Assembly: GCA_903848645.1 (NCBI GenBank)
Contig: CAINGU010000031.1
Span: 1 to 64,000, forward strand
From: an uncultured cyanobacterium
GTDB taxonomy: Bacteria; Cyanobacteriota; Cyanobacteriia; Cyanobacteriales; Nostocaceae
Direction of reading: 5' to 3'
Length of the DNA stretch: 64,000 nucleotides
A program made the position numbers and the translations under genes. The notes below the pieces were generated by a model. It did no database searches and was not told the origin of the DNA. It saw only the letters and a program-made list of their open reading frames with translations. Positions 27,926 through 50,415 of the stretch are shown piece after piece (positions within the stretch are counted from its first letter, which is position 1; each line of letters starts with the position of its first letter).

Positions 27926-28081
27926 TTATGCTTTTACTGCTAAGTAAATTGTGCCGAGCACAACCGTAGCAATAAGGAGTGCGGGTGCATACATTGCTAA
28001 TAGGGTTTCTGCTACTACAACCACTACAAGGTCTCTTACAAAACCTTTGCTTTTAGTGTAAACAACAAAGTCTTTTAACAT
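27926..28081 (-). CDS. 51-residue membrane protein
   Basis: Two hydrophobic stretches (VVVVVAETLLAMYAPALLIA and TVVLGTIYLAV). ATG overlaps the stop of the SPFH gene, so probably its partner in the membrane. Confidence 0.55.
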   Translation of the reverse strand: MLKDFVVYTKSKGFVRDLVVVVVAETLLAMYAPALLIATVVLGTIYLAVKA

Positions 28082-31295: not shown

Positions 31296-32414
31296 TTAAT
31301 CTGCATCAGGGCTAACTTCACGAATTGATCGCAAAGCATCACCAGTTGGTTTTAATTGTTTCCAAATTACTTCATCAATTGGTTTTCCATCAAGCATTTT
31401 GAAAAACATTGGACGATAGGGGTTTCCCTCAGTTGAAAGAGCAAATTCTTTTCTATTAATAGGCTCACTCATATTAGTATTTGGATTAAGAACAATCTTA
31501 GAAAATTGGCTTCTTACATCCAAGAAAATTCTTGCAAATTCTTTTCTAAACTCTTCTGTAATTGTTTTAAGCCAAGTGTGGAATTCATCTGGAGCATTAG
31601 CAAACACAACATCTGGATTTTCTCCAGCAGCCAAAACTTCCCAAACGTGCTTAGGATTAATGCGAGTCATAAATTTATGAAGTAAAACATATTCTTCAAA
31701 TTTAATTTTAATTCTTTCGCAATCCATAGTACGAATTACAAAACCTTCACGATTTGGTTCTTGTGGTGCTTCTAAAACTTCCCGTAAAGTTTTATAAGGA
31801 TGAATTTCAACTACAGGAATATTAGGAAAACACTCTTTTAAAGTTTCTACAGAAACATCTGCTCCAGAACTTATTTGGATTGCACCAATTAAAACTAATC
31901 CTTCTTGACCTTTATAATCAACAACAATTCTATTTTCTGGATAAATTATTTCAAATAAATGAGTAAATTCATCTTCAATCCACTCAAGTTGTGAGTAACC
32001 ATTATCATTAAAATATTTAGTTGCCCAACGTGCTTGGTCTGAATCCATAGACCCACGAGTAGAAATAGCAAGTTCACCATTAGGAAGGGGATAAATAATA
32101 CCCAACGAACCGTCCATTTTTTCTGTAACTTCAATTTTTTGATCTAAATCAATTACAGGTGCTCCCTCTTGACCATAATTAAAAAATTTATGAAATGGAC
32201 GAGCTAATACTTCTTGTGTATCTGCATTAAAGATTAATCCACGACATTGCAAAGTTGAATTGTTCCAAATACCCTCCCAAGCACAAGACTCGCTATAGTT
32301 AGCTATCTTAATTTGTGGAAATTCAGGATGTGAACGCTCGCGGATGTAACCTTTGAGTACCATTTCTGCATACTCTTCAAGGTCTAACACATCCGACAAC
32401 TTTGTGTCTGACAT
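31296..32414 (-). CDS. RNA ligase, T4 Rnl1-like
   Basis: 372 residues, close to the 374 of T4 Rnl1. Motif I is EKMDGSLG (Lys99), preceded by CRGLIFN and FHKFFNYGQE as in Rnl1; motif IV is EGFVIRT and motif V IKIKFEEY. Rnl1-type enzymes rejoin tRNA anticodon loops cut by host nucleases, working with a kinase/phosphatase that heals the ends; that enzyme is encoded immediately upstream with overlapping codons. Together with the phage's own tRNAs this points to tRNA repair. Confidence 0.85.
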   Translation of the reverse strand: MSDTKLSDVLDLEEYAEMVLKGYIRERSHPEFPQIKIANYSESCAWEGIWNNSTLQCRGLIFNADTQEVLARPFHKFFNYGQEGAPVIDLDQKIEVTEKMDGSLGIIYPLPNGELAISTRGSMDSDQARWATKYFNDNGYSQLEWIEDEFTHLFEIIYPENRIVVDYKGQEGLVLIGAIQISSGADVSVETLKECFPNIPVVEIHPYKTLREVLEAPQEPNREGFVIRTMDCERIKIKFEEYVLLHKFMTRINPKHVWEVLAAGENPDVVFANAPDEFHTWLKTITEEFRKEFARIFLDVRSQFSKIVLNPNTNMSEPINRKEFALSTEGNPYRPMFFKMLDGKPIDEVIWKQLKPTGDALRSIREVSPDAD

Positions 32415-33313
32415 TAAAAATCTCCTTCTGCTACTTGATATGTTTTTAATTTAAGTTTGTTTCTCCAGAGATCAACTACTTGGTCTCTGTCGTCAAATAC
32501 ACCTAAAACATTATATTTATCACGGATGTATTCATTGAATATGTCATATTTTACCAGATAATCGGCTCTTTCGTCAAGAGACCCACGCATATATAAATGT
32601 TCATATTGAATTCCATTATCTGATAGCCACTCTACCGTATCTTGGTATGCCGTAGCTTTTCTTCCAGATACAATAAGGATTACAGACTCACTTAATGACC
32701 ATAATATTTCACGAACTCCGATATCTACAGTATCGGTAGATACTAAATTGATATCATAAGGGCTACGATTATGCATATGAGCAAGAGTACCATCAATATC
32801 AAAAATATACGCTCTATCCAAATCAGGGCGAGGCACATAAGGTTCAAATGTAACTAATTCAGCAGTCTTGTAAGGCTTTAACTTAATTGCTTCTGTATAC
32901 ATAGAACGAATTGCCTTTTCGCCAACTGGAACCTCACGCTTAGAATCCCGCTCTAAGCAAGTTTCAAGAGGAACAGACAAAAAGCTATCATCAATAGTTA
33001 CTGTTGCTCCAAATTTATTAGCAATTTTTTCCAAAGATCTAACTGTTCTAATATTCAAATTAGTGTTATCAACAATAATTTTTTCAATTAAATCAGATTT
33101 AAGATAGACTTCCAAAAGCTTTTCACGAGTTGCTTGTAGCACATCAGATATTCCTGGCTGTCTGCGCCACCCTTTTCCAAAAGTCATAGCAACTATATCA
33201 TCATTGTTAATACGGGCTACAGTGCCCTCTGTACGGGCTTTAATGTAGTTAAAAGCAGCAGTGCTCTTCCCAGATGCTGGTATACCTCTAGGTATAATTA
33301 CTTCTTTAATCAT
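32414..33313 (-). CDS. Polynucleotide kinase/3'-phosphatase
   Basis: 299 residues in T4 Pnkp order: N-terminal kinase with P-loop GIPASGKST (residues 10-18) and a C-terminal HAD phosphatase with FDIDGTL (D172, D174). It would add 5'-phosphate and remove 3' or 2',3'-cyclic phosphate to prepare RNA ends for ligation. Start MIKEV chosen because GAGGAAAA lies just upstream within the preceding gene. One-base overlap with the Rnl1-like gene. Confidence 0.87.
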   Translation of the reverse strand: MIKEVIIPRGIPASGKSTAAFNYIKARTEGTVARINNDDIVAMTFGKGWRRQPGISDVLQATREKLLEVYLKSDLIEKIIVDNTNLNIRTVRSLEKIANKFGATVTIDDSFLSVPLETCLERDSKREVPVGEKAIRSMYTEAIKLKPYKTAELVTFEPYVPRPDLDRAYIFDIDGTLAHMHNRSPYDINLVSTDTVDIGVREILWSLSESVILIVSGRKATAYQDTVEWLSDNGIQYEHLYMRGSLDERADYLVKYDIFNEYIRDKYNVLGVFDDRDQVVDLWRNKLKLKTYQVAEGDF

Positions 33314-33743
33314 CTTTTTCCTCTTCATCTACTGGATAACCTGCTATAATAGCACAATCATTACATAATGTTTTGTACCAATAATTTCTACATCTTACTT
33401 TTACACTATTATCATATCTTGTACGAATTGTACCGTATCTAGCTGCACCACATATTTCACATATATTTTCAGAAAGCTGTTCTGCATATGAAATTAAATC
33501 ATTAATGATATCTGCAGCCTTTGTGTCTATTTCTGTGCCTGCTCCGCCAACATAAAACCTTAATGTTCCAAATTTTTCTTTTACTTGATGAATTTCATAA
33601 TTTGGAGCCAAGTATGCAATTTTATCATCTAAATCATTGATTAGTTCATACCAGCCAGAGTCCATGCTAATCCACTTCCCCCACCCTCTAGGTATTCGGG
33701 AAGTAATTTTTTCTCTAATTTCTGCAATTCTATTTTGATCCAT
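33306..33743 (-). CDS. Hypothetical protein with zinc-ribbon
   Basis: 145 residues; QVKEKFGTLRFYVGG in the centre and a C-terminal CEICGAA...VRCRNYW..LCNDC four-Cys site. The QVKEKFGTLRFY motif occurs in many phage proteins of unknown role. Overlaps the kinase gene start. Confidence 0.65.
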   Translation of the reverse strand: MDQNRIAEIREKITSRIPRGWGKWISMDSGWYELINDLDDKIAYLAPNYEIHQVKEKFGTLRFYVGGAGTEIDTKAADIINDLISYAEQLSENICEICGAARYGTIRTRYDNSVKVRCRNYWYKTLCNDCAIIAGYPVDEEEKDD

Positions 33744-40479: not shown

Positions 40480-40693
40480 ATTTATCGCTAATTTCCCACG
40501 TCCCACTGGAAGTTAGATTATAGCGATTTGAGTATCCCCACTTATTATTTCTAAATAAACCATTAGGTTGCATGAAGCCGTTATTACTTGGAGACCATTT
40601 CACAATAGTAAAACCATCCCAAAAAAATCCTTTATCTTTATTTTTATCAACAAATTCATGTGCTGATTCGTAATTTAATGTGATCTTAGGCAC
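40463..40693 (-). CDS. Hypothetical 76-residue protein (GTG start)
   Basis: GTG start with GGAAGAG 6 bp upstream, inside the groES-like end. FFWDGFTIVKWSPSNNGFMQPNG, aromatic-rich. Overlaps WhiB start. Confidence 0.5.
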   Translation of the reverse strand: MPKITLNYESAHEFVDKNKDKGFFWDGFTIVKWSPSNNGFMQPNGLFRNNKWGYSNRYNLTSSGTWEISDKYANLI

Positions 40694-40991
40694 GTTGCTC
40701 TCTTCCAAATAGGTTACGCCAATTAACAAACTCGTATTTTTCTCCTACAGAATCTTTAACTTCTGTTCCATGATTATCAGAATAATAAACGATATCTCCA
40801 ACATCTAATGGAATTGGGTGTGTTGTTCCGTATTGGTCTCTTTCCCCTGGCCCGACTACAATAACTTCACCGCGTTGTAGATCAGATTCTAAAGTTGATG
40901 CAGTCATGATTAAGCCAGTCGGTGTAACTTTTTCAGTTACCTCTATCTTTTTTACTAAAATTAACCCGCCGAGCGGTAAAATATTTGTCAT
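40686..40991 (-). CDS. GroES/Cpn10-like co-chaperonin
   Basis: 101 residues: ILPLGGLILVKKIEVTEKVTPTGLIM at the N-terminus, GEVIVVGPGER, and DVGDIVYYSDNHGTEVKDSVGEKYEFV, the order of a Cpn10 beta-barrel. The mobile loop region (TPTGLIMTASTLES) is present. It would cap host GroEL during folding of phage proteins, as T4 Gp31 does. Own consensus promoter upstream (TTGACA, 18 bp, TATAAT at about 41021-41051). Confidence 0.82.
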   Translation of the reverse strand: MTNILPLGGLILVKKIEVTEKVTPTGLIMTASTLESDLQRGEVIVVGPGERDQYGTTHPIPLDVGDIVYYSDNHGTEVKDSVGEKYEFVNWRNLFGREQRA

Positions 40992-42870: not shown

Positions 42871-42947
42871 TGGTGCCAATGAAGGGATTCGAACCCCCAG
42901 CCTAACGGGTAGAAACCGTTCGCTCTAATCCGTTGAGCTACATTGGC
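42871..42947 (-). tRNA. tRNA-Arg (TCT)
   Basis: Acceptor GCCAATG/CATTGGC, loop TTTCTAC, T-loop TTCGAAT, discriminator A and encoded CCA. Reads AGA, common in AT-rich genomes. Confidence 0.92.
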
Positions 42948-42951
42948 ATAG

Positions 42952-43023
42952 TGTGACATAAGAGAATTGAACTCTTGTATGCGGTACCACAAACCGCCGT
43001 TCTTCCATTGAACTAATGCCACC
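42952..43023 (-). tRNA. tRNA-His (GTG)
   Basis: Acceptor GTGGCAT/ATGTCAC, loop TTGTGGT. A G directly precedes the stem, supplying the G-1 identity base required by HisRS. Confidence 0.88.
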
Positions 43024-43034
43024 ACGATCTTGCG

Positions 43035-43106
43035 TACCCCTAGTTGGAATCGAACCAACAACATTTCGGTTAAGAGCCGAAAGCTCTGCCATTGAGCTAC
43101 AGAGGC
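43035..43106 (-). tRNA. tRNA-Lys (CTT)
   Basis: Loop CTCTTAA, T-arm GTTGG-TTCGATT-CCAAC. The acceptor stem uses several G-U pairs; no encoded CCA. Confidence 0.85.
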
Positions 43107-43107
43107 T

Positions 43108-43183
43108 TGGTAGGTTGCATGGGATTCGAACCCACAGTCTCACGCCTTAAAAGGGCGGGGTTTTACCGTTAAACTAACAACCC
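43108..43183 (-). tRNA. tRNA-Lys (TTT)
   Basis: Loop CTTTTAA, T-loop TTCGAAT, discriminator A and encoded CCA; starts 2 bp from the tRNA-Lys(CTT). Confidence 0.88.
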
Positions 43184-43195
43184 ATATTTAAACAC

Positions 43196-43224
43196 AAAAG
43201 GCACTTTATAAAAAGTACCTTTTA
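43196..43224. terminator. Hairpin between membrane gene and tRNAs
   Basis: AAAGGTACTTT/AAAGTGCCTTT with one G-U, T-run on both sides; ends the 43263 gene transcript or separates tRNA units. Confidence 0.6.
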
Positions 43225-43262
43225 TTTAACACTTGCAGACCAAGAATATTATTATAGCACTT

Positions 43263-43562
43263 TTACACAGATATATCAATATCTCTATGTTTATGCTTTA
43301 ATTTAACCATTTCTTCTATCTCCTCGTAATCCTTTTTCTTGGGATCATTATCTTTATATAATGCATCAATTGTCTTTCTATCTTCAAGTCTTTGTGCACC
43401 TTCACCCATACCAATAAATAACATTGCAATAGGAATTAAAATACCCATTGGAATAGTTTGCCAGTATTTAATTCCATTAAGACTAATTGCAGATAAATAA
43501 CCAGTAACTCTTGCTGGATATTTTTCAAAATAAAAAGATACAATTGCCCAATATTTTTTCAT
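43263..43562 (-). CDS. Membrane protein inside the tRNA array, leaderless
   Basis: 99 residues from MKKYWAIV. TATAAT lies exactly 6 bp upstream of this ATG, so the message is probably leaderless. One or two hydrophobic segments (about 20-55), charged C-terminal tail with KKKDYEEIEEMVKLKHKH. Function unknown. Confidence 0.6.
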   Translation of the reverse strand: MKKYWAIVSFYFEKYPARVTGYLSAISLNGIKYWQTIPMGILIPIAMLFIGMGEGAQRLEDRKTIDALYKDNDPKKKDYEEIEEMVKLKHKHRDIDISV

Positions 43563-43579
43563 AGTTCTATTATACATCA

Positions 43580-43653
43580 TGGTAGTCCTAGAGGGTAACG
43601 CTCCCTCTTCTCCAGGGTGAAAACCTGGTATCCTGCTTCTAGACGATAAGACC
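43580..43653 (-). tRNA. tRNA-Glu (TTC), unusual T-loop
   Basis: Acceptor GGTCTTA/TAGGACT, loop TTTTCAC, encoded CCA. The T-arm is GAGGG-AGCGTTA-CCCTC: the loop lacks the universal TTC, a trait shared with tRNA-Phe and (as GGCAGTA) tRNA-Gly. Confidence 0.85.
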
Positions 43654-43657
43654 AGAG

Positions 43658-43729
43658 TGTTCTATATAGGATTTGAACCTATACTGTGTAGCTTTTGAAA
43701 CTACCGCCTCTGCATTGGGCTAATAGAAC
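43658..43729 (-). tRNA. tRNA, anticodon CAA (Leu) with short variable loop
   Basis: Acceptor GTTCTAT/ATAGAAC, anticodon stem GTAGT/GCTAC with loop TTCAAAA, T-loop TTCAAAT. The variable region is only five bases, unlike normal tRNA-Leu. Confidence 0.75.
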
Positions 43730-43730
43730 T

Positions 43731-43806
43731 TGGTGCACTAGGTAAGAGTCGAACTTACAACACTACGGGTCTAAGCCGTATTTCTCTACCATTGGAATAC
43801 TAGTGC
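43731..43806 (-). tRNA. tRNA, anticodon TAG (Leu) with short variable loop
   Basis: Perfect acceptor GCACTAG/CTAGTGC, loop CTTAGAC, T-loop TTCGACT, encoded CCA. Also lacks the long variable arm expected for Leu. Confidence 0.8.
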
Positions 43807-43807
43807 T

Positions 43808-43889
43808 TGGTACTATGTGTTGGAATCGAACCAACCTGCCGTAGCCAGAGTTTTACAGACTCCTAACACACCTTGTGTTCTACATAGTA
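43808..43889 (-). tRNA. tRNA-Tyr (GTA)
   Basis: Loop CTGTAAA and a variable arm of about 10-11 bases (GC-TACG-GC), the class II form typical of bacterial Tyr. Encoded CCA. Acceptor alignment is off by one base. Confidence 0.82.
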
Positions 43890-43963
43890 TGGTACCCAAA
43901 GAGGGATTCGAACCCCCGTCCACTCCTTCGTAGGGAGGCATTCATCCTCTGAACTATTTGGGT
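43890..43963 (-). tRNA. tRNA-Arg (ACG)
   Basis: Acceptor ACCCAAA/TTTGGGT, loop CTACGAA (A34 would be deaminated to inosine), T-loop TTCGAAT, encoded CCA; abuts tRNA-Tyr. Confidence 0.9.
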
Positions 43964-43967
43964 AAAG

Positions 43968-44039
43968 CTCTCCGCTCTGGATTCGAACCAAAATTTCTAG
44001 GGCCAAAACCTAGCGTCCTTCCTGTTGGACGAACAGAGA
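43968..44039 (-). tRNA. tRNA-Gln (TTG)
   Basis: Acceptor TCTCTGT/GCGGAGA with two G-U pairs, loop TTTTGGC, T-loop TTCGAAT; no encoded CCA. Confidence 0.85.
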
Positions 44040-44040
44040 A

Positions 44041-44128
44041 TGGCGGAAAAAACAGGATTCGAACCTGTGGAACTTTTACATTCAACGGTTTAGCAAACCG
44101 TCACAATAAACCACTCTGTCATTTTTCC
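44041..44128 (-). tRNA. tRNA-Ser (GCT)
   Basis: Class II: loop TTGCTAA, long variable arm, acceptor GGAAAAA/TTTTTCC, discriminator G, encoded CCA. Confidence 0.9.
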
Positions 44129-44133
44129 TTGCG

Positions 44134-44204
44134 TACCTAATGAGAGAATCGAACTCCCGCAATTGGTATGTAACACCAATGTTCTTCCATTAAACTAATC
44201 AGGT
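44134..44204 (-). tRNA. tRNA-Val (TAC)
   Basis: Acceptor ACCTGAT/ATTAGGT, loop GTTACAT, T-arm GGGAG-TTCGATT-CTCTC. Confidence 0.87.
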
Positions 44205-44205
44205 T

Positions 44206-44279
44206 TGGAACCCCATGTCGGTACTGCCCCGACTTCGCCAGTTTGGAAGACTGGTACATTACTTTTATGCTAATGAAGT
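44206..44279 (-). tRNA. tRNA-Gly (TCC), unusual T-loop
   Basis: Anticodon arm CCAGT-CTTCCAA-ACTGG, acceptor ACTTCAT/ATGGGGT with G-U pairs, encoded CCA. T-arm GTCGG-GGCAGTA-CCGAC lacks TTC in its loop. Confidence 0.82.
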
Positions 44280-44280
44280 G

Positions 44281-44368
44281 TGGAAGATGTAGGATTCGAA
44301 CCCACGAGAGATTTTACCTCTTCTAGTTTTCAAGACTAGTGCGATCAGCCAGACTCTGCCAATCTTCC
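44281..44368 (-). tRNA. tRNA-Ser (TGA)
   Basis: Class II: loop CTTGAAA, long variable arm (AGAGG...CTCTC), acceptor GGAAGAT/ATCTTCC. No encoded CCA. Confidence 0.87.
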
Positions 44369-44369
44369 T

Positions 44370-44444
44370 TGGTTGATGTAAATAGAGTTGAACTATTGCT
44401 TCCTACTTATCAGATAGGTGTGCTAACCGTTACACAATACATCA
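44370..44444 (-). tRNA. tRNA-Ile (GAT)
   Basis: Acceptor TGATGTA/TACATCA, loop CTGATAA, T-loop TTCAACT, encoded CCA. Confidence 0.88.
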
Positions 44445-44445
44445 G

Positions 44446-44516
44446 TGGGAAAACACGGTAACGCTCCGCATTCTACTGGGCTTCAACCAGTCGCTTTTCT
44501 TTTAAGCTATTAACCC
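44446..44516 (-). tRNA. tRNA-Phe (GAA), unusual T-loop and acceptor
   Basis: Anticodon arm ACTGG-TTGAAGC-CCAGT. T-arm TGCGG-AGCGTTA-CCGTG has the same odd loop as tRNA-Glu. The acceptor GGGTTAA/TTTTCCC contains two U-U mismatches, so it may be defective or need tolerance by the synthetase. Confidence 0.75.
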
Positions 44517-44517
44517 T

Positions 44518-44591
44518 TGGTGGAGAATAAGAGAATCGAACTCTTATCGCTACATTGCAAATGTAGCATTCTTCCATTAAACTAATCCCCC
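44518..44591 (-). tRNA. tRNA-Ala (TGC)
   Basis: Loop TTTGCAA in stem CTACA/TGTAG, T-loop TTCGATT, encoded CCA. The canonical G3-U70 identity pair of Ala is present. Confidence 0.9.
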
Positions 44592-44595
44592 AATT

Positions 44596-44669
44596 TGGAG
44601 GGGCAGGAAAGTATTTCAGTTTCATCTATGGAATTGCATTTGACCATAGCCCTCTATGAGAACTGCCCC
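44596..44669 (-). other. tRNA-like element of unclear identity
   Basis: Perfect 7 bp acceptor GGGGCAG/CTGCCCC, T discriminator and encoded CCA at normal tRNA length (74), and a T-arm-like GAAA...TTTC. The D-arm is a three-pair CTC-ATA-GAG and no regular anticodon arm forms. It may be a degenerate tRNA or a mimic. Confidence 0.5.
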
Positions 44670-44670
44670 G

Positions 44671-44743
44671 AGATTATGGTGAGAATTGCACTCACGAACA
44701 GATGCTTTGCAGGCACCGACAATTACTATTCTGTCACATAACC
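44671..44743 (-). tRNA. tRNA-Cys (GCA)
   Basis: Anticodon arm GGTGC-CTGCAAA-GCATC, T-arm GTGAG-TGCAATT-CTCAC, acceptor GGTTATG/CATAATC, U73 as required for CysRS. Confidence 0.82.
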
Positions 44744-44749
44744 AAATAA

Positions 44750-44782
44750 AAAACCCGCCTATTTTTTATATAGACGGGTTTT
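44750..44782 (-). terminator. Terminator downstream of the Ro60 gene and its 25-codon follower
   Basis: AAACCCGTCTA/TAGGCGGGTTT stem (one G-U on the - strand) followed by a T-run; separates the Ro60 transcript from the tRNA-Cys group. Confidence 0.7.
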
Positions 44783-44799
44783 AGATAAATTTCAACCCG

Positions 44800-44877
44800 T
44801 TATTTTAGGTACGCCGAAAAAATCACTTGGCGTGATTCAAAACTGCCTTGTCCTTGGAGACATTGTGCTTGTTTCAT
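44800..44877 (-). CDS. 25-residue peptide after the Ro60 gene
   Basis: MKQAQCLQGQGSFESRQV..., ATG 6 bp after AAAGGAAG, stop just before the terminator. Gln-rich and short, but the ribosome site is among the best in the area. Might be a small partner of Ro60, or fortuitous. Confidence 0.4.
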   Translation of the reverse strand: MKQAQCLQGQGSFESRQVIFSAYLK

Positions 44878-44941
44878 TTTCGACTTCCTTTCCATAACTG
44901 TTTGTTTAATAAGTATATCTTACCATATTGCTAGTAAGATG

Positions 44942-46561
44942 TCAAATTCTTCCTGCGGAAAAATCTGCTAGAATCTTTGGAGCATTTGAGTCAAATCCAA
45001 CAAAGTCCATCATTCCTTGATCTTCTGGATCAGCAATCGTGAAACCTGTAGAAGAAACTCCAAGCACTGCTAACTTTGCATTAATACCAGTCTTATTACG
45101 ATATTCCTTCAATGCTTGGAAAGGCTTTACTTTTCCATCATATGTTTCATTATCTGTAATAATAACAAATGTATCAACTTCAATATTATTCTTTGCTGCA
45201 TAAAGCATTGGCAAAGAGCAATCTGTTGCACCAAAATTAGATAGTCGTACTTTCTCCATAGCACTAGACAAGCTTGTGCGAGAAGAAATTCCAAGATCTG
45301 TCATTCCCGTCTCGTAACGATTATATCCAGCACTAGTAAATCCCATAATTGTATGAGCAGGTTCTGTGCGAGCAATTGTCATTGCCATTGCACCAGAAAC
45401 TTGTGCACAACTTAGGTCAATTCCTAGAGCACTTGAACTCATGGAACCAGATACATCTACGCCGATAAAAGTACGCTTTCCTGCAGACTCAACTGCTTTG
45501 AAAGAAAGAATGTATCCATCATTAAGTGCATCAATGATAACACTAGATGTAGTCCAATCCTTATTTCTTGCATACCCATGAAAGCCGCCGTATCCTTTAC
45601 GATCAACTTGACCCTCTTCATAAGTAACTACTGTGTTTAAGTAATTAATTGGATGAAGCTTAGTACGCTTAATCATTTCAAGATCAGTTAATTTAGCAGC
45701 ATAATCTTTAGCAAAATTTATATCATTTAATGCACCATTGCGAGCAAGGCGGACAATGTTACGAATTAATGCTTGACCGTTTAGTTGTCCATTGTAAAAC
45801 AATGTCTTCCAAACATCTGCATCTGTTAAGAATTGTGTAGGAATTGCTTCCCAAGGTAGGTTCTTGTTTGTATTAAGGATTGAAAGAACATCCTTAACAG
45901 ATCCCGCCTTTTGTAATGATTCAAATCCCTTAATTGTTTCGTTATTAGACTCATGGGCCTTACCCAAAACAAAGTTACCAATTTCTTGATTAATTCCAAC
46001 TGGGTGAGACAAACGGAACAAGTCACGGTGTGTCCAGCCATCACGTTGGCGATACTTAATTGCTTGATATGACAAATCATTTTCAGATTTATTTGTGTAC
46101 CAATCAGCAATAGCACCCTTTTTAGCACGACCCCAACCACCAAGATTTTCGATATATTGTGCAAATTCAAATACATGAGTAGATGTACGAGCAATATTAT
46201 CAAAAATAGAACGAGTTGCAGCCTTATTCTTACCTTCTGTAAACAAAAGAGCAAGAGCAAATAATGCAGGGCTATTCTTGTATGCACGACCATTTGTAGA
46301 TACTTCTACAATAGTGTTGCGAACTAGATCTTCATCTGCATGAATTAGATCAGTTAAAAATTTTACGCTTTCGCCTGTAATTTTCTTTTCATTGGCGTAA
46401 TATGTACCACCATCAGTTCCTAAAATTAAGAATCTTTCAAGACGCGACTTATCAGATACTTGAAAAACATATCCTCCAGCGTTGTTCTTAATTTCATCTG
46501 TGCGTGAACGCTCTGTTTGAGCAGTTACTTTCTTATTTACATTCTTTAGTGCATTTGACAT
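44942..46561 (-). CDS. Ro60-like TROVE/vWA RNA-binding protein
   Basis: 539 residues from MSNALKNV, 7 bp after AAGGAG; the frame stays open further upstream only because it runs into Y RNA sequence. Residues about 30-330 form the TROVE ring of HEAT-like helices (YIENLGGWGRAKKGAIADWY, DGWTHRDLFRLSHP). Residues about 355-539 are a vWA domain with MIDAS GVDVSGSMSS (about 366), T in GATDCS and D in IITDNE. Ro60 binds Y RNAs on its outer rim and 3' ends of misfolded RNA in its cavity; bacterial versions work with exonucleases in RNA turnover. Five candidate Y RNAs lie directly upstream on the same strand. Confidence 0.9.
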   Translation of the reverse strand: MSNALKNVNKKVTAQTERSRTDEIKNNAGGYVFQVSDKSRLERFLILGTDGGTYYANEKKITGESVKFLTDLIHADEDLVRNTIVEVSTNGRAYKNSPALFALALLFTEGKNKAATRSIFDNIARTSTHVFEFAQYIENLGGWGRAKKGAIADWYTNKSENDLSYQAIKYRQRDGWTHRDLFRLSHPVGINQEIGNFVLGKAHESNNETIKGFESLQKAGSVKDVLSILNTNKNLPWEAIPTQFLTDADVWKTLFYNGQLNGQALIRNIVRLARNGALNDINFAKDYAAKLTDLEMIKRTKLHPINYLNTVVTYEEGQVDRKGYGGFHGYARNKDWTTSSVIIDALNDGYILSFKAVESAGKRTFIGVDVSGSMSSSALGIDLSCAQVSGAMAMTIARTEPAHTIMGFTSAGYNRYETGMTDLGISSRTSLSSAMEKVRLSNFGATDCSLPMLYAAKNNIEVDTFVIITDNETYDGKVKPFQALKEYRNKTGINAKLAVLGVSSTGFTIADPEDQGMMDFVGFDSNAPKILADFSAGRI

Positions 46562-46594
46562 AATCGGCTCCTTCCAGAGCATAGTTGGTTGTAT

Positions 46595-46733
46595 AAAAAA
46601 AATAACGAATGTGTTATAGATTTCGGGTTTTACCTGCTTTACCATTAAGCTACATCCCTTGCGGGACAGGTGGGAATCGAACCCTCCAACTGGTCGTTAT
46701 AAGCGATAACCGAAAGTCTGCCGACTCGTTATT
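46595..46733 (-). ncRNA. Candidate Y RNA 5, with permuted tRNA-like domain
   Basis: 5' AATAACGA pairs with 3' TTCGTTATT; then GTCGG..., and ACTTTCGG pairs with CCGAAAT in front of the UUAUC motif. Between the strands lie a T-arm (46669-46687, loop TTCGATT), an acceptor-like stem TGTCCC/GGGATG capped by a GCAA tetraloop (46659-46662), and a D-arm (46636-46650). T-arm before D-arm is the reverse of tRNA order and matches bacterial YrlA RNAs. An oligo-U tract follows the last helix, so the terminal stem doubles as a terminator, about 30 bases before the Ro60 ribosome site. Confidence 0.8.
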
Positions 46734-46746
46734 CATTGTTAATTTT

Positions 46747-46898
46747 AAAAGTACAAATGTGTGGTAGAAATAGTTTGGTTGTTGTTTTTTGGCGGATGCT
46801 CTACCGACTGAGCTAACAAAAGTCCCTGGGACAATTGTGTTGGATTCGAACCAACGGCACTCTGCTTGAAGGTAAACTAATTCAATCGACTCGTACTT
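46747..46898 (-). ncRNA. Candidate Y RNA 4, with permuted tRNA-like domain
   Basis: Terminal stem AAGTACGA/TTGTACTT; GAGTCGA strand; helix GAATTAGTTT with AAACTATTTC (nine of ten pairs); motif variant GTTTACC. Internal domain: T-arm 46839-46855 (loop TTCGAAT), acceptor-like hairpin 46816-46838 (ACAA..GTCC-CAG-GGAC..TTGT), D-arm 46798-46813. Again T-arm precedes D-arm. About 150 nt. Confidence 0.75.
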
Positions 46899-46908
46899 AT
46901 TTAATTTT

Positions 46909-46982
46909 AATTATGAATATGTTGTGTAAAACGGTGATTTTCTGAAATGATAACCGTAATACTCCGACTCATATATTTAATT
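46909..46982 (-). ncRNA. Candidate Y RNA 3, short form
   Basis: AATTA...ATATG pairs with CATAT...TAATT; GAGTCGGA in the internal loop; GTA-TT-ACGG with CCGT-TT-TAC; then GGTTATC opens the terminal loop. 74 nt, no tRNA-like domain. Confidence 0.75.
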
Positions 46983-46986
46983 GTAG

Positions 46987-47076
46987 CATATGGATATGTT
47001 ATTGTCAATAGAGAGCCAGCTCACTGGCAGTTTGTCATTGATTGATAAGATAACTATCGAACATTCGGCCCATATG
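46987..47076 (-). ncRNA. Candidate Y RNA 2, short form with extra hairpin
   Basis: CATATGG/CCATATG terminal stem; GCCGA internal strand; ATGTT and CGATAG pair with AACAT and CTATTG; GTTATC follows; the loop carries a GCCAG...CTGGC hairpin. 90 nt. Confidence 0.75.
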
Positions 47077-47083
47077 TAATTTT

Positions 47084-47152
47084 AAAGATAAGCATAAAAT
47101 GTATAACGAGTTTTTCATCCCTTTGATAATCGTAATACTTCGGCTCACCTTT
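47084..47152 (-). ncRNA. Candidate Y RNA 1, short form
   Basis: AAAGGTGAG pairs with CTTATCTTT (G-U pairs included); CCGAA internal strand; GTATTACGA with TCGTTATAC (one U-U); then TTATC at the loop entry. 69 nt, starting 4 bases after tRNA-Pro. Confidence 0.75.
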
Positions 47153-47156
47153 TTTG

Positions 47157-47227
47157 TCTGAATAGAAGGAATCGAACCTTCACCCCATGCTCCCAAAGCA
47201 CGAGTTCTACCATTAAACTACATCCAG
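47157..47227 (-). tRNA. tRNA-Pro (TGG)
   Basis: Anticodon arm CGTGC-TTTGGGA-GCATG, acceptor CTGGATG/TATTCAG, T-loop TTCGATT. Confidence 0.87.
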
Positions 47228-47261
47228 TCAATATTGCATTTTAAATAGATGCAAAAACTAT

Positions 47262-47332
47262 TGGCACCCCGTCAAGGAATTGAACCTTGCAAGACAAGTT
47301 TTGGAGGCTCGTCCGTTCCCAGAACCCAGGAT
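47262..47332 (-). tRNA. tRNA-Trp (CCA), truncated D-arm
   Basis: Anticodon loop CTCCAAA, T-arm CAAGG-TTCAATT-CCTTG, acceptor ATCCTGG/ACGGGGT, G73 and encoded CCA. The D-arm is reduced to GTTC-TGG-GAAC and the body is about five bases short. Confidence 0.75.
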
Positions 47333-47333
47333 T

Positions 47334-47407
47334 TGGTTGGAATACTAGGAATTGAACCTAGATATACGGCGTATGAAACCGTTGTTCTGCCCTTGAACTA
47401 TACTCCA
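47334..47407 (-). tRNA. tRNA-Met (CAT), elongator-like or tRNA-Ile2
   Basis: Acceptor TGGAGTA/TATTCCA, loop TTCATAC, T-loop TTCAATT, encoded CCA. A lysidine-modified Ile2 cannot be excluded from sequence. Confidence 0.85.
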
Positions 47408-47408
47408 G

Positions 47409-47481
47409 TAGCGTGGGGTCGGATTCGAACCGACATTGTTAGGCTTATGAGACCCGTGAGTTACCAGTACTCTACCCCGCT
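47409..47481 (-). tRNA. tRNA-Met (CAT), initiator-like
   Basis: Body AGCGGGG-TA-GAG...CTC, loop CTCATAA, T-arm GTCGG-TTCGAAT-CCGAC strongly resembles bacterial initiator tRNA. The 3' acceptor strand has one bulged A. Confidence 0.75.
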
Positions 47482-47489
47482 ATATGAAG

Positions 47490-47612
47490 CATTTTAAATC
47501 CGCTCCAAAGATTAGGCAACTCTATTGAGTCCGTCCACCACTAAACTTTTAACGTATTGTTTAGAACTACGGCAGTAACTACTTGGTTACGAGTCCAAGT
47601 TTTCTCCGCGTA
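47490..47612 (-). ncRNA. Structured RNA at the head of the tRNA/Y RNA operon
   Basis: No tRNA fold, but several hairpins: CTTGG-...-CCAAG, CCGT...CTAAAC/GTTTAG...ACGG and ACTC-AATA-GAGT. Core words TAACCAAGTA, TAGTTCT and GACTC...GCC recur in the same order in the RNA at 49775-49895. Starts at the operon promoter. Confidence 0.45.
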
Positions 47613-47618
47613 ATATAT

Positions 47619-47658
47619 ATTATATACCATACGGGGAACTTTTGTCAAATTCCCCGTA
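47619..47658 (-). promoter_or_regulatory. Operon promoter enclosed by a perfect inverted repeat
   Basis: TTGACA (47648-47643), 18 bp, TATAAT (47624-47619). TACGGGGAA and TTCCCCGTA (47630-47638 and 47650-47658) form a 9 bp perfect repeat with an 11 bp centre containing most of the -35 box; a likely operator for the tRNA/Y RNA/Ro60 operon, although a hairpin terminator for hsp20 is an alternative. Confidence 0.65.
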
Positions 47659-47721
47659 CAATATTTAGGTTCGCTCCGTGAAAGGACAGTCACGGGATTC
47701 TCTGCGTATTATTATTATATC

Positions 47722-48294
47722 TTATTTGATGGTGATTTGTCTAGCTTGTTCTTCTTCTGGAAGGTTTCTAACTAATTTAATAGTTAAAATTCCATCCTTA
47801 AATGCAGCAGATTCAACTTCTACATATTCGGCTAAAGCGAAAGCTCTAGTAAATGATCGGGTTGCAATACCTTTATAACTATATTTCTTTTCTTTTTCTT
47901 TATCTTCTTCAATTGAACCTTCAATTAAAAGAGCATTTTTTTCTTGTTTAATTGAAATATCTTTTTTGCTAAATCCAGCAACTGCCAATTCAACTAAAAT
48001 TGTATTTTCATCTTCTGGGAAAATATTGTATGGAGGAAATGTTCCAGAATTTTTAATAATTCTTTCACCTAGCAATTCTAGATTTTCTAATTGCTTATCC
48101 CACCCAATAAAGTTTTTTGAGATATCTATTCCATTATATTGTGTGTAAACTGCGGGAATAGTATTTAATCCATTCCAAAGTACGGAACTAGTTGGTAGTG
48201 TACTTGTTAATGTAGATTGTAATGCACCACTAAATGTTGCGGAATTTGCTGATGCTGCATAATTAATTGTAATTCCATTTGTTTTTTTTGTCAT
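47722..48294 (-). CDS. Hsp20/alpha-crystallin small heat-shock protein
   Basis: 190 residues from MTKKTNGI, 6 bp after AAAGGGG. Variable N-terminal 90 residues, then an alpha-crystallin domain (about 92-175) with YNIFPEDENTILVELAVAGFSKKDISI, and GIATRSFTRAFALAEYVEVESAAFKDGILTIKL near its end. It binds unfolded proteins as an oligomer. Its leader contains a perfect UUCG-type hairpin. Promoter not certain. Confidence 0.85.
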   Translation of the reverse strand: MTKKTNGITINYAASANSATFSGALQSTLTSTLPTSSVLWNGLNTIPAVYTQYNGIDISKNFIGWDKQLENLELLGERIIKNSGTFPPYNIFPEDENTILVELAVAGFSKKDISIKQEKNALLIEGSIEEDKEKEKKYSYKGIATRSFTRAFALAEYVEVESAAFKDGILTIKLVRNLPEEEQARQITIK

Positions 48295-48321
48295 TTTAAC
48301 CCCTTTCAGCGAGTTATATTT

Positions 48322-48350
48322 TATATAGATTCCCGAAGGCAATCTATATA
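48322..48350 (-). promoter_or_regulatory. Leader hairpin of hsp20
   Basis: TATATAGATT/AATCTATATA, 10 bp perfect, capped by GCC-TTCG-GG; sits 27 bases before the start codon, close to the ribosome site. Candidate RNA thermometer or terminator of the upstream gene. Confidence 0.5.
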
Positions 48351-48381
48351 TATTATAATACTTACTGATTTTAGAGCAAAA

Positions 48382-48792
48382 TTACTGGTTTGATTTACCT
48401 TTTGGACTAGAAGAATTACCGTATCCTACTGATGGTTTCCCGTCATTTTGTGTAGGGGAATTATAGGTAGATTTCCATCCAGCATCCCCGTTTTGGATAC
48501 CAAATACGGGAGATAAAGAGCCACCCCAAAAACTTAACGAACCAATACCTTCTTGTTCATCTTGTTTAGTTTGACCATATTGTTCATCTTTAATTAATGG
48601 TTCATCTGAACCTAGTGCTTCAAATGCTTTAATTGCTTCTTCTTCTGTTAAATAGCAGCCAATAGACTGACCAGTTCCCGCTTTTGTCAATGACCAACCA
48701 TGCTGACAATCGGGGGTACTAAATTCAATTTTCCAGCCGACTCCGCCACTTATACGACCAGAGTATGCTCCAACATCTTTTTCAGTTTCCAT
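48382..48792 (-). CDS. Hypothetical Gly/Ser-rich protein
   Basis: 136 residues. N-terminal compact domain (VGWKIEFSTPDCQHGWSLTKAGTGQ...), C-terminal half low-complexity and disordered. Possibly virion-associated; no motif. Confidence 0.55.
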   Translation of the reverse strand: METEKDVGAYSGRISGGVGWKIEFSTPDCQHGWSLTKAGTGQSIGCYLTEEEAIKAFEALGSDEPLIKDEQYGQTKQDEQEGIGSLSFWGGSLSPVFGIQNGDAGWKSTYNSPTQNDGKPSVGYGNSSSPKGKSNQ

Positions 48793-48796
48793 TTAA

Positions 48797-48886
48797 TTAC
48801 TTCTTTTTATAAATAGAAGCAGCAGCTTTTGCTAAACTGCTTACGTTTAGTCTGATGCGTTTCTTCTTTTTTGCCTTTGGTGTCAT
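48797..48886 (-). CDS. 29-residue highly basic peptide
   Basis: MTPKAKKKKRIRLNVSSLAKAAASIYKKK: ten Lys and three Arg; probable nucleic-acid binder. Overlaps the preceding gene end. Confidence 0.45.
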   Translation of the reverse strand: MTPKAKKKKRIRLNVSSLAKAAASIYKKK

Positions 48887-49191
48887 ATAGATTCTATCGC
48901 AAATACTGCAAGTTTTGGTGTTCCTGATGCTGCAATTGCATAAACTTGATCGTCTGCTCCAAGTTCATAGGCTACTGCTTGAGCAAATGGAAGTTGGTAC
49001 CCATAAGAAGTTGCAGATAAAATATTACCATTAACATCTTTATAAGACCCAAGATAGATAGTTATTGCTGCGTCTGTATTTAAAAAACTTGTTGCTGCGG
49101 TACGTTCGTATCCCATTTCATTTGCCTGTGCAATGCTTACAAGTGTTGGGGTTGTAGCATTAAGTGTTACTAGTTGGTGTGCTGTTGCCAT
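48883..49191 (-). CDS. Hypothetical protein, possible structural
   Basis: 102 residues, Ala/Thr-rich, beta-strand pattern (HQLVTLNATTPTLVSIAQ). Such sequences are frequent among small head-decoration proteins, but no family is identified. Confidence 0.5.
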   Translation of the reverse strand: MATAHQLVTLNATTPTLVSIAQANEMGYERTAATSFLNTDAAITIYLGSYKDVNGNILSATSYGYQLPFAQAVAYELGADDQVYAIAASGTPKLAVFAIESI

Positions 49192-49675
49192 TTGTTTTTC
49201 CTCCTGAATTAATTACTTTCTTTAAAGATATATTTTTCATATCTGCTTGCGTTAAAACTTCTGCAGCAGCAGGTGTTCCATTTTTTCTAAATCTTAGTGT
49301 TTCCCATAATGCATGGGGTAAAGAGTGAACTCCATAGTGTGTTCTATGATGATTAGTGCATAAAACTTCAAGATTTCCTGGACTCTCTAACCATTCTTGA
49401 AATTCTTGATCATTTTGAAAATGTAATCCAAAATATGCTTCAACTTTTTCTTCGGAAGTATTGTTAAGTTGGGAAAATTCTATATGAGTGTGATGTAATT
49501 CTGGTTCTCCACCACAAAGATCATCATTAATAACACATTTCCAAAGACCAGCTTTTTTGATTTTTTCTTTAGCTTGTTCAAAATATTTATAATTTGGATC
49601 ATCTTCGCGTGGGTCATGCTCTGGGATATGTGCCAGAATGTGAAGTTCTATATTTTGATCGTGTGCATCAGTCAT
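49160..49675 (-). CDS. HNH-type endonuclease
   Basis: 171 residues. ELHHTHIEF (first His pair) and NLEVLCTNHHRTHYG (Asn and final HH) form an HNH motif, with CVINDDLCGG as a possible zinc pair. C-terminal low-complexity tail. May be a homing nuclease or, near terminase genes, a packaging-associated nuclease; distance from terL (about 1.6 kb) leaves both open. Confidence 0.75.
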   Translation of the reverse strand: MTDAHDQNIELHILAHIPEHDPREDDPNYKYFEQAKEKIKKAGLWKCVINDDLCGGEPELHHTHIEFSQLNNTSEEKVEAYFGLHFQNDQEFQEWLESPGNLEVLCTNHHRTHYGVHSLPHALWETLRFRKNGTPAAAEVLTQADMKNISLKKVINSGGKTNGNSTPTSNT

Positions 49676-49696
49676 GATAGTTTAATTATACACTAT

Positions 49697-49770
49697 TGGA
49701 GCCACATGTAGGAATCGAACCCACAACATCTGATTACAAGACAGAAGTTTTACCGTTAAACTAATGTGAC
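49697..49770 (-). tRNA. tRNA-Thr (TGT)
   Basis: Acceptor GTCACAT/ATGTGGC, loop CTTGTAA, T-loop TTCGATT, encoded CCA. Last anticodon-stem pair is a U-U. Confidence 0.87.
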
Positions 49771-49774
49771 GTGA

Positions 49775-49895
49775 AGACCATATACGAATTCCAGCACATT
49801 GAATGGCTGCCCTAAGAGTCTCCCGCAGAACTAGTCTCACGGGTTACTTGGTTATTCGTAACTATATCCATACTAAGGTGTGTCGTATATAGTCT
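49775..49895 (-). ncRNA. Structured RNA within the tRNA array
   Basis: A 13 bp terminal helix (AGACTATATACGA with TCGTATATGGTCT, one G-U) encloses about 95 bases with hairpins GTTA-CGAA-TAAC, CCCG...CGGG and CAGC...GCTG. Not a tRNA. Shares ordered core words with the RNA at 47490-47612, suggesting one RNA family. Confidence 0.55.
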
Positions 49896-49897
49896 AG

Positions 49898-49979
49898 TGC
49901 CCTGGATCAGATTTGAACTGATACATCTTGCGATAGCAAATTTTAAGTCTGCCGTGTCTGCCGATTCCACCACAAGGGC
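49898..49979 (-). tRNA. tRNA-Leu (TAA)
   Basis: Normal class II Leu: long variable arm (TATCGCAAGATGT region), loop CTTAAAA, T-loop TTCAAAT, acceptor GCCCTTG/CCAGGGC. Confidence 0.87.
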
Positions 49980-49983
49980 TTAG

Positions 49984-50057
49984 TAGAACAATTGGGAATT
50001 GAACCCAACTCTAGGGAGGATATAAGCCACCATCTGACCACCAGCCAGCCCTGTTCT
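49984..50057 (-). tRNA. tRNA-Ile (TAT)
   Basis: Anticodon loop CTTATAT in stem GGTGG/CCTCC, T-loop TTCAATT, acceptor AGAACAG/TTGTTCT. Reads ATA directly. Confidence 0.78.
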
Positions 50058-50061
50058 ATAT

Positions 50062-50307
50062 TTAGTTAGCTGAACCTATTGCTTTGTTCTGAACTAACTT
50101 TTCTCGCTCGTCTAAAATTTCATAAGCGAATTCTTTTAATGCAGTTTCATTTTTTGCGAAATGGTGTCCACAGAACATCAATTCTCCTGAAACTCCTTTA
50201 ACCAAAACTAATGCTTCTGCAGAACAAGCATCACAACGATTTATTGGCCCTAAAACATACTCTTTTTCAATTGGTTTATTTTCAGTTGTTTCTATCGTCA
50301 TATTCAT
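50062..50307 (-). CDS. DUF7455-like zinc protein
   Basis: 81 residues. RCDACSAEALVLVKGVSGELMFCGHHFAKNETAL matches the Cys/His pattern (RCDxC...FCxHH) of a short zinc protein common in actinobacteria and their phages. Function unknown. Lies between tRNA-Ile and tRNA-Asn. Confidence 0.7.
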   Translation of the reverse strand: MNMTIETTENKPIEKEYVLGPINRCDACSAEALVLVKGVSGELMFCGHHFAKNETALKEFAYEILDEREKLVQNKAIGSAN

Positions 50308-50342
50308 ATTATACTCTCTTTGTTAGATGGTTAATAGTTTTG

Positions 50343-50415
50343 CTGGAATGGCTAGGCTCGAACTAGCGACTTGAGAATTAACAGTTCTCCACTCTACCGA
50401 CTGAGTTACACTCCA
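50343..50415 (-). tRNA. tRNA-Asn (GTT)
   Basis: Acceptor TGGAGTG/CATTCCA, anticodon arm GAGAA-CTGTTAA-TTCTC, T-arm GCTAG-TTCGAGC-CTAGC, G73. First tRNA of the array; its first ten bases overlap the endonuclease gene upstream. Confidence 0.9.

What the first reader, a model, noticed from the sequence alone, without database searches (positions are those of the whole stretch)
44942..47152. A phage Ro60-Y RNA particle: five tandem candidate Y RNAs directly upstream of a TROVE gene
Seen in sequence: five consecutive units (47152-47084, 47076-46987, 46982-46909, 46898-46747, 46733-46595) on the Ro60 strand, separated by only 4-13 bp. Each begins with a G(A/G)GYCGR or CCGA strand, continues into a helix and ends it at UUAUC (UUUACC in unit 4), and each has its own complementary 3' strand with different base composition, i.e. 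compensatory pairing rather than sequence repetition. Established: Y RNAs bind Ro60 through a helix with a YCGA-type strand and a conserved GUUAUC/GUUUAC at the loop side; Ro60 with Y RNA is known in bacteria and reported for a mycobacteriophage. Inference: five Y RNAs of two architectures in one phage operon would be an unusually rich Ro60 system, possibly letting one Ro60 present different tRNA-like or loop modules.
Basis: partly seen in the sequence, partly recalled or inferred. Interest (0 to 1): 0.95.

Follow-up and report, generated by a model that had tools for sequence, protein, structure and literature searches.

The report
Phage Ro60 with five Y RNAs
A bacteriophage carries, just in front of its Ro60 gene, five small RNA genes that look like the Y RNAs Ro60 binds in animals and bacteria; two of them imitate part of a tRNA, and related phages carry similar arrays, so the find is real but belongs to a known kind.

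Summary
Covariance models built only from other phages' units, with the window left out, recover all five units (E 3e-16 and 3e-10 for units 5 and 4 with R2; 6e-8 to 4e-4 for units 1-3 with R1). R1 finds nothing else in the 64 kb; R2's other 12 hits score 22 bits or less and overlap tRNA genes. The gene beside them is a full Ro60 (TROVE plus vWA), and three RNA-contact residues that I recall from Xenopus Ro are invariant in nine phage proteins. The Ro-binding core (outer helix, bulged C, G·U pair, inner helix, GUUAUC) covaries strongly across actinophages. Units 4 and 5 carry a YrlA-type tRNA-like module; units 1-3 do not.

The reading as a phage Ro60-Y RNA particle is supported by comparison; binding and transcription are untested. 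'Unusually rich' is overstated: 21 of 80 viral and 8 of 80 bacterial Ro60 loci have five or more such units. Y RNAs near phage Ro60 are already in print, so this is a new member of a known kind. The wider pattern, large Y RNA arrays woven into phage tRNA islands with some copies far from Ro60, is the more interesting result.

The parts
44942..46561 (-). Ro60 (TROVE + vWA) gene, 539 aa
   Evidence: Pfam TROVE 1.4e-30 and vWA_Ro60 2.4e-59; PHROG 850 RNA-binding protein 1.3e-95; profile of 9 phage proteins matches solved Rsr 2nvo (1.7e-159) and Xenopus Ro 1yvp (5.6e-152)
47084..47152 (-). Y RNA unit 1, short type without tRNA-like module; 3 bases after tRNA-Pro
   Evidence: R1 31.9 bits E 8.3e-5; R2 23.9 bits E 0.0018; fold z -4.0
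46987..47076 (-). Y RNA unit 2, short type with an extra internal hairpin
   Evidence: R1 29.0 bits E 3.7e-4; R2 33.9 bits E 7.7e-6; weak fold z -1.2
46911..46974 (-). Y RNA unit 3, short type
   Evidence: R1 46.2 bits E 6e-8; R2 33.3 bits E 1.1e-5
46749..46898 (-). Y RNA unit 4, tRNA-like (YrlA-type) module in the order T arm, acceptor, D arm
   Evidence: R2 52.2 bits E 3.4e-10; Rfam YrlA 25.5 bits, below gathering; T, acceptor and D stems in the MFE fold
46600..46734 (-). Y RNA unit 5, tRNA-like (YrlA-type) module; outer helix followed by a T run, so possibly a terminator
   Evidence: R2 77.9 bits E 2.8e-16; Rfam YrlA 26.4 bits, below gathering; T run seen; not among the terminator-like sites
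47156..47227 (-). tRNA-Pro(tgg) directly upstream of unit 1 (part of the tRNA island)
   Evidence: ARAGORN and Rfam
47619..47648 (-). sigma-70-like promoter TTGACA-18-TATAAT upstream of three called tRNAs and the array (weak evidence)
   Evidence: 12 of 12 match, but promoter-like sites overall are no more than shuffles give (10 found, 10.0 expected)
46980..47008 (-). possible internal promoter TTGACA-17-TACAAT; its start would fall near the first base of unit 3 (weak)
   Evidence: 11 of 12, TG before second hexamer; same caveat
44750..44782 (-). terminator-like stem-loop after Ro60

Best explanation
The five units are Y RNAs that the phage makes for its own Ro60. Shown by comparison: each has the Ro60-binding core (outer helix, bulged C, G-U pair, inner helix, GUUAUC), and the neighbouring protein keeps the residues that I recall as contacting RNA in animal Ro. 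Inferred: each RNA docks by this core on the outside of the Ro60 ring. Units 4 and 5 hold out a tRNA-like module that recruits a host protein recognising tRNA-like or structured RNA, most likely the exonuclease PNPase, as in the Deinococcus RYPER particle. Units 1-3, without that module, occupy or gate the same surface or tether something else. In infection the particle would survey and degrade, or help repair, damaged structured RNA such as cleaved tRNA; this phage also carries 21 called tRNAs in its island, a T4-type RNA ligase and a polynucleotide kinase/phosphatase.
For: Independent model hits to all five. Covariation in the families: 54 doubly changed cells against 20.8 shuffled for the short type, 169 against 62.9 for the tRNA-like type; 84% and 88% of cells paired against 33-45% and 33-49% when slid. 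16 of 16 Ro60-bearing virus records have model hits, though 13 of them supplied training units; 78 of 80 bacterial Ro60 loci, none used in training, also have hits. 17 of 20 contigs found by the 5' motif alone carry TROVE. K169, R173 and H186 align to Xenopus K170, R174 and H187 and are invariant in 9 phage proteins (that these contact RNA is recalled). RYPER and the YrlA-PNPase tether as described in PMC8394870, PMC4726728 and PMC7790460 (passages read). RNA ligase and PNKP at 31296-33328.
Against: No binding or expression data. The partner is unknown, and no search for PNPase or another partner was made in the phage. T4-type RNA ligase is in only 8 of 16 Ro60 records (two of the 16 are IMG/VR contigs that may be fragments), so the link to repair is not general. 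Such units occur at bacterial Ro60 loci too, so nothing ties the array to infection as such. The two training alignments were picked partly by pairing, which inflates their covariation; searches are less biased, and only 24 of 35 units beat 95% of non-cognate arms. One covariation measure in A1 (pairs changed on both sides, 12 against 9.9) was reached by 51 of 500 shuffles.
Confidence: 0.55

Rival explanations
1. The RNAs are Ro60-bound Y RNAs, but the tRNA-like ones act as decoys: they occupy or inhibit host tRNases or tRNA-binding defence proteins and so shield the phage's and host's tRNAs.
For: They sit in the phage tRNA island. PMC7790460 (passages) raises competitive inhibition of an anticodon nuclease by YrlA as an alternative. 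PMC10264068 (passages) argues that tRNAs of cluster C1 mycobacteriophages counter tRNA-cleaving defences; that LinStu (L013, Bixzunavirus) belongs to that cluster is my knowledge.
Against: The tRNA-like modules have no anticodon arm, which is a usual target; PMC7790460 notes that YrlA's domain is not cut by the nuclease it studied, which allows inhibition but does not show it; three of five units have no tRNA-like part; bacterial chromosomes carry the same kind of module.
Confidence: 0.2
2. Y RNAs mainly gate and stabilise Ro60: several RNAs compete for one site to set how much Ro60 is free to bind misfolded RNA, and the loops matter little.
For: Y RNA control of access to Rsr is described for Deinococcus (PMC4726728 passages). 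The Ro-binding core is conserved while loops vary between units.
Against: The tRNA-like arms covary strongly (changes on both sides in 8 of 8 acceptor pairs, 4 of 5 T-arm pairs and 3 of 4 D-arm pairs), so that module is selected for.
Confidence: 0.2
3. The units are decayed tRNA genes or chance hairpins in a tRNA island, not Y RNAs.
For: T-loop and D-loop boxes of real tRNA type are present; single-sequence folding is only moderately better than shuffles for units 2-5.
Against: The T-acceptor-D order is permuted and enclosed by a covarying Ro-binding helix that independent models find in all five window units and in 78 of 80 bacterial Ro60 loci; units 1-3 have no tRNA part but have the core.
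Confidence: 0.03

Closest known systems
Y-RNA-like units of actinophages with Ro60 (Streptomyces phages of Stanwilliamsviridae, Rhodococcus phage Trina, Bixzunavirus LinStu)
   Same: Same core and both architectures, upstream of Ro60 in 15 of the 16 loci I took (all but L016, Atu_ph07), often among tRNA genes
   Different: Different loops and numbers: near Ro60, Trina has 10 R2 hits, TunaTartare 5 with one more 28 kb away, LinStu 3. The window phage has five and none elsewhere on its 110 kb contig
YrlA, Rfam RF02553 (Salmonella-type tRNA-like Y RNA)
   Same: Units 4 and 5: basal helix and T, acceptor and D arms in the same order, full-length sub-threshold alignment
   Different: 26.4 and 25.5 bits against gathering 69; units 1-3 have no such module
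Y RNA arrays at bacterial Ro60 genes (Nocardia, Propionibacteriaceae, Chloroflexi)
   Same: Found by the phage-trained model in 78 of 80 bacterial loci, often several per locus
   Different: In cellular genome assemblies; median 2.5 units per locus; up to 8 in Chloroflexi-type loci
RYPER (Ro60/Rsr, Y RNA, PNPase) of Deinococcus radiodurans
   Same: Ro60 plus Y RNA; the proposed mechanism is borrowed from it (PMC4726728, PMC8394870, passages)
   Different: PNPase association not tested here; D. radiodurans locus not examined

Membership tests
Bacterial/phage Y RNA | Encoded next to a Ro60 gene | tested here: met
   38 bases between unit 5 and the Ro60 start codon; Pfam TROVE and vWA_Ro60
Bacterial/phage Y RNA | Ro-binding core: about 7-bp helix, bulged C, further pair, bulge on the opposite strand | tested here: met
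   In A1: 7 outer pairs, a C at the bulge column in all rows, G-U or G-C next in 16 of 16; window units align to it. Unit 2 has a C/A mismatch at the last outer pair. Vertebrate description from PMC4726728 passages
Bacterial/phage Y RNA | Pairing supported by covariation in relatives | tested here: met
   less biased tests (24 of 35 units in the top 5% against non-cognate arms; 29 of 33)
Bacterial/phage Y RNA | Bound by Ro60 and present as discrete RNA | not testable with these tools
   needs RNA-seq and pull-down
YrlA (RF02553) | tRNA-like domain with T, acceptor and D arms | tested here: met
   units 4 and 5 only; not met by units 1-3
YrlA (RF02553) | Reaches Rfam gathering score | tested here: not met
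   26.4 and 25.5 against 69; the best control hit is 49.1. I call units 4 and 5 YrlA-type, not RF02553 members
Ro60 protein | TROVE ring and vWA domain with MIDAS (DxSxS) | tested here: met
   D369, S371 and S373 invariant in A3; the MIDAS reading is recalled
Ro60 protein | RNA contact residues of animal Ro | tested here: met
   K169, R173, H186 at Xenopus K170, R174, H187 (their role is recalled)
RYPER particle | Y RNA tethers Ro60 to PNPase | not testable with these tools
   no binding data

The most novel reading that the evidence does not exclude
Large tRNA-rich phages of Actinobacteria run an expandable Y RNA repertoire on one Ro60 hub: five to more than ten Y RNAs, spread through the tRNA island and sometimes tens of kilobases from Ro60, with a shared docking core and interchangeable effector modules. 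This would be a phage-made, multi-adaptor RNA surveillance or counter-defence particle rather than a single RNA scaffold.
Probability: 0.25. Interest if true: 0.8.

Novelty: new member of a known kind. Interest (0 to 1): 0.5.

Why it matters
What Ro60 and Y RNAs do in bacteria is still largely open, and I found no experiment on them in phages in the passages I read, beyond highly transcribed regions that PMC12282133 suggests may be Y RNAs in a Listeria phage. Sequenced, cultivable laboratory phages (for example Streptomyces phage Comrade and Rhodococcus phage Trina) turn out to carry sets of Y-RNA-like genes; none is annotated as a Y RNA in the 14 annotated stretches I looked at, and in Trina and Microbacterium phage SM23 such stretches are annotated as tRNA. 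That makes the question 'why several Y RNAs per Ro60' directly testable by deletion. The two models would also help annotators find such RNAs, which Rfam's gathering thresholds miss in the window.

Tried and rejected
Rfam at gathering threshold gave only tRNAs in the window. MFE folding alone was not decisive. The first detector, which demanded a 3' motif, missed unit 1 and gave no hit in 6 of the 16 relatives' loci; the relaxed one brought about four likely spurious hits in relatives (L009 5018, L012 2676, L013 3482 and 6212). The idea that phages use Y RNAs without Ro60: 3 of 20 motif-bearing contigs sent lack TROVE, all short (43.6, 29.1 and 4.7 kb; the shortest has no R2 hit), so it is unproven; one of the 17 TROVE matches has stops inside and at least one runs to its contig's end. 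Of 27 motif stretches 7 were not sent: six lie on contigs already found with Ro60 and one is a second stretch of a contig that was sent. A general link with T4-type RNA ligase was not borne out (8 of 16). Degenerate tRNA genes were considered and rejected. Literature: the key paper (Chen et al. 2014, RNA 20:1715) is not held; I recall that its abstract reports likely Y RNAs near Ro60 in more than 250 bacterial and phage species. [quoted passage not shown] Nine paper searches (listings seen, passages of nine papers read) showed me no description of multi-Y-RNA arrays in phages; the library lacks most subscription papers.

Limits of the survey: it counts locus ids that I copied by hand, full-length R2 hits only (241 of 242 bacterial, 270 of 274 viral), at E<=0.05; R1-only hits were not added. 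Some loci are cut short at contig ends and some weak hits may be tRNA genes.

Full report
What was checked. The minus strand from 47227 to 44942 reads: tRNA-Pro, five candidate Y RNAs, then a 539-residue Ro60. Each unit starts with GRGYCGR; four end the inner strand with UUAUC and unit 4 with UUUACC.

Setting. The window is bases 1-64000 of a 109,918-bp contig (C31) in a 5.4 Mb, 119-contig genome. That genome has psaA and psaB, so the assembly is a cyanobacterium. The contig is a phage: terminase large subunit (about 64% identical to Streptomyces phages Muntaha, Wakanda and Comrade), DNA polymerase III alpha, RecA-like and Cas4-like proteins, a WhiB-like protein and 22 called tRNAs in the window, 21 of them at 42871-50415. 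I infer a phage of an actinobacterium that was co-assembled or binned with the cyanobacterium; this was not tested further. The only TROVE gene found in the assembly is this one.

Relatives. tblastn of the Ro60 finds 342 of 50,697 phage records, mostly Mycobacterium (197) and Streptomyces (115). I took 14 annotated loci and two IMG/VR loci. Upstream of Ro60, 15 of the 16 show such units (for Gordonia phage GMA2 one R1 hit of 33.3 bits); Agrobacterium phage Atu_ph07 shows none there. Trina's annotators marked one such stretch as a pseudo tRNA, and in Microbacterium phage SM23 a tRNA-Asn annotation lies on one.

Structure and covariation. Sixteen short units (A1) and 22 tRNA-like units (A2), none from the window, were aligned. 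For the named structures 83.7% and 88.2% of cells pair, against 66.0% and 64.9% when 3' letters are shuffled and 32.5-44.8% and 32.6-49.0% when strands are slid. Doubly changed cells number 54 (20.8 shuffled) and 169 (62.9 shuffled). One whole-structure measure did not stand out: pairs with a change on both sides in A1, 12 against 9.9, reached by 51 of 500 shuffles. The Y of YCGR pairs as U-A in 12 and C-G in 10 of 22 rows of A2. A C follows it in all rows, then a G that pairs with U or C in all rows. Because units were partly chosen for pairing, two tests with less of that bias matter more. Cognate arms beat at least 95% of non-cognate arms in 24 of 35 units. With no 3' motif demanded, 29 of 33 best-pairing arms show the same 3' motif, against 0.9 on average in shuffles. 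Sequences are related, so these counts are not independent events.

The window units. Models R1 (from A1) and R2 (from A2) were built without the window. In the 64 kb R1 gives three hits only, units 3, 1 and 2; R2 gives units 5, 4, 2, 3 and 1, then 12 hits of 22 bits or less that overlap tRNA genes. The rest of contig C31 has no hit (R1; R2). A whole-assembly R2 search, which scored 150 of 616 candidates, adds only two sites on another contig. In the MFE fold unit 4 forms T, acceptor and D stems and unit 5 forms T and acceptor stems; the D arm of unit 5 appears in the model alignment. The order T-acceptor-D, closed by the basal helix, is that of YrlA as its Rfam model lays it out.

Ro60. A profile of nine phage proteins matches Deinococcus Rsr (2nvo) and Xenopus Ro (1yvp) over nearly their length. 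K169, R173 and H186 are invariant and fall on Xenopus K170, R174 and H187, which I recall as RNA-contact residues.

How rich is five? R2 over 80 bacterial and 80 viral Ro60 loci (at most 5 kb on each side) gives full-length hits in 78 and 75 of them; medians 2.5 and 3, maxima 8 and 10; five or more in 8 and 21. R1 gives 131 and 184 hits in the same sets. The limits of this count are told in Tried and rejected. So five is above the middle but ordinary. Contig G076 (IMG/VR 3300009147_000001, 110 kb) has 14 R2 hits, 11 of them above 34 bits and one on a tRNA gene; nine of the 11 lie at 101-110 kb among tRNA genes and two near the start, where Ro60 is. In LinStu and Phabba further hits lie 33-39 kb from Ro60, and in Atu_ph07 over 100 kb away.

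Mechanism. I commit to a RYPER-like tether as most likely (0.55), from established work on Rsr, Y RNA and PNPase (PMC4726728, PMC8394870 and PMC7790460, passages only). Decoy and gate models remain open. The phage's RNA ligase and PNKP (31296-33328) fit an RNA repair or quality-control theme, but only 8 of 16 Ro60 records carry that ligase family.

Novelty. Y RNAs beside phage Ro60 are known in kind: Chen et al. 2014 (recalled, not held), cited for mycobacteriophages in PMC12282133, which also proposes them for a Listeria phage (passages). The window is a new, well-supported member. What may be new is the scale and layout of the arrays; I saw no account of it in nine searches of the held library, which is incomplete.

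Noticed in passing
L033 4260-4549 minus strand (contig C86 of the cyanobacterial assembly, about 74.26-74.55 kb): Two tandem permuted tRNA-like modules (T arm, acceptor, D arm) that match R2 (33.9 and 28.1 bits); one also matches Rfam YrlA below threshold (27.6 bits). The only TROVE gene found in the assembly is on the phage contig, so these may be Ro60-less YrlA-like RNAs.
   Followed up: partly
window 31296-33328 minus strand: T4-type RNA ligase next to a polynucleotide kinase/phosphatase: an RNA (probably tRNA) repair pair in the same phage.
   Followed up: partly
G076 (IMG/VR 3300009147_000001), L222 1100-10102, with further hits near the contig's start: 11 R2 hits above 34 bits (14 in all, one of them on a tRNA gene) among tRNA genes, most at the far end of the contig from its Ro60 at 6.4 kb; the two ends adjoin only if the contig is circular, which was not tested. 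Largest set seen here.
   Followed up: partly
L092 6692-6757 and L059 4762-4867: Short bacterial Y-RNA-like units near Ro60 in Chloroflexi and Nocardia reach the gathering score of the nematode family RF01656 (42.9 and 38.9 bits, cut-off 38), which I recall as stem-bulge RNAs related to animal Y RNAs.
   Followed up: no
phage records W09 (LinStu) 93-94 kb, W11 (Phabba) 91-94 kb, W12 (Atu_ph07) 447 and 467 kb: Y RNA model hits 33-39 kb (LinStu, Phabba) and over 100 kb (Atu_ph07) away from the phage's Ro60.
   Followed up: no
L223 4259-4792 (G074, 29 kb contig): Four Y-RNA-like units beside tRNAs on a contig with no TROVE match; the contig may be a fragment.
   Followed up: partly
window 28081-29013 and L009 4675-5529: Band-7/SPFH membrane protein in the window phage; in Rhodococcus phage Trina the same family lies directly after Ro60. 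The genes after Ro60 in Comrade and Faust gave no Pfam match.
   Followed up: partly
window 47722-48342 and 40686-40991 minus strand: Phage-borne small chaperones: an Hsp20-like protein upstream of the array and a GroES-like co-chaperonin.
   Followed up: no
window about 47260-47332 minus strand: A stretch between two called tRNA genes with a T-arm-like sequence that neither ARAGORN nor Rfam calls; perhaps a divergent or broken tRNA.
   Followed up: no
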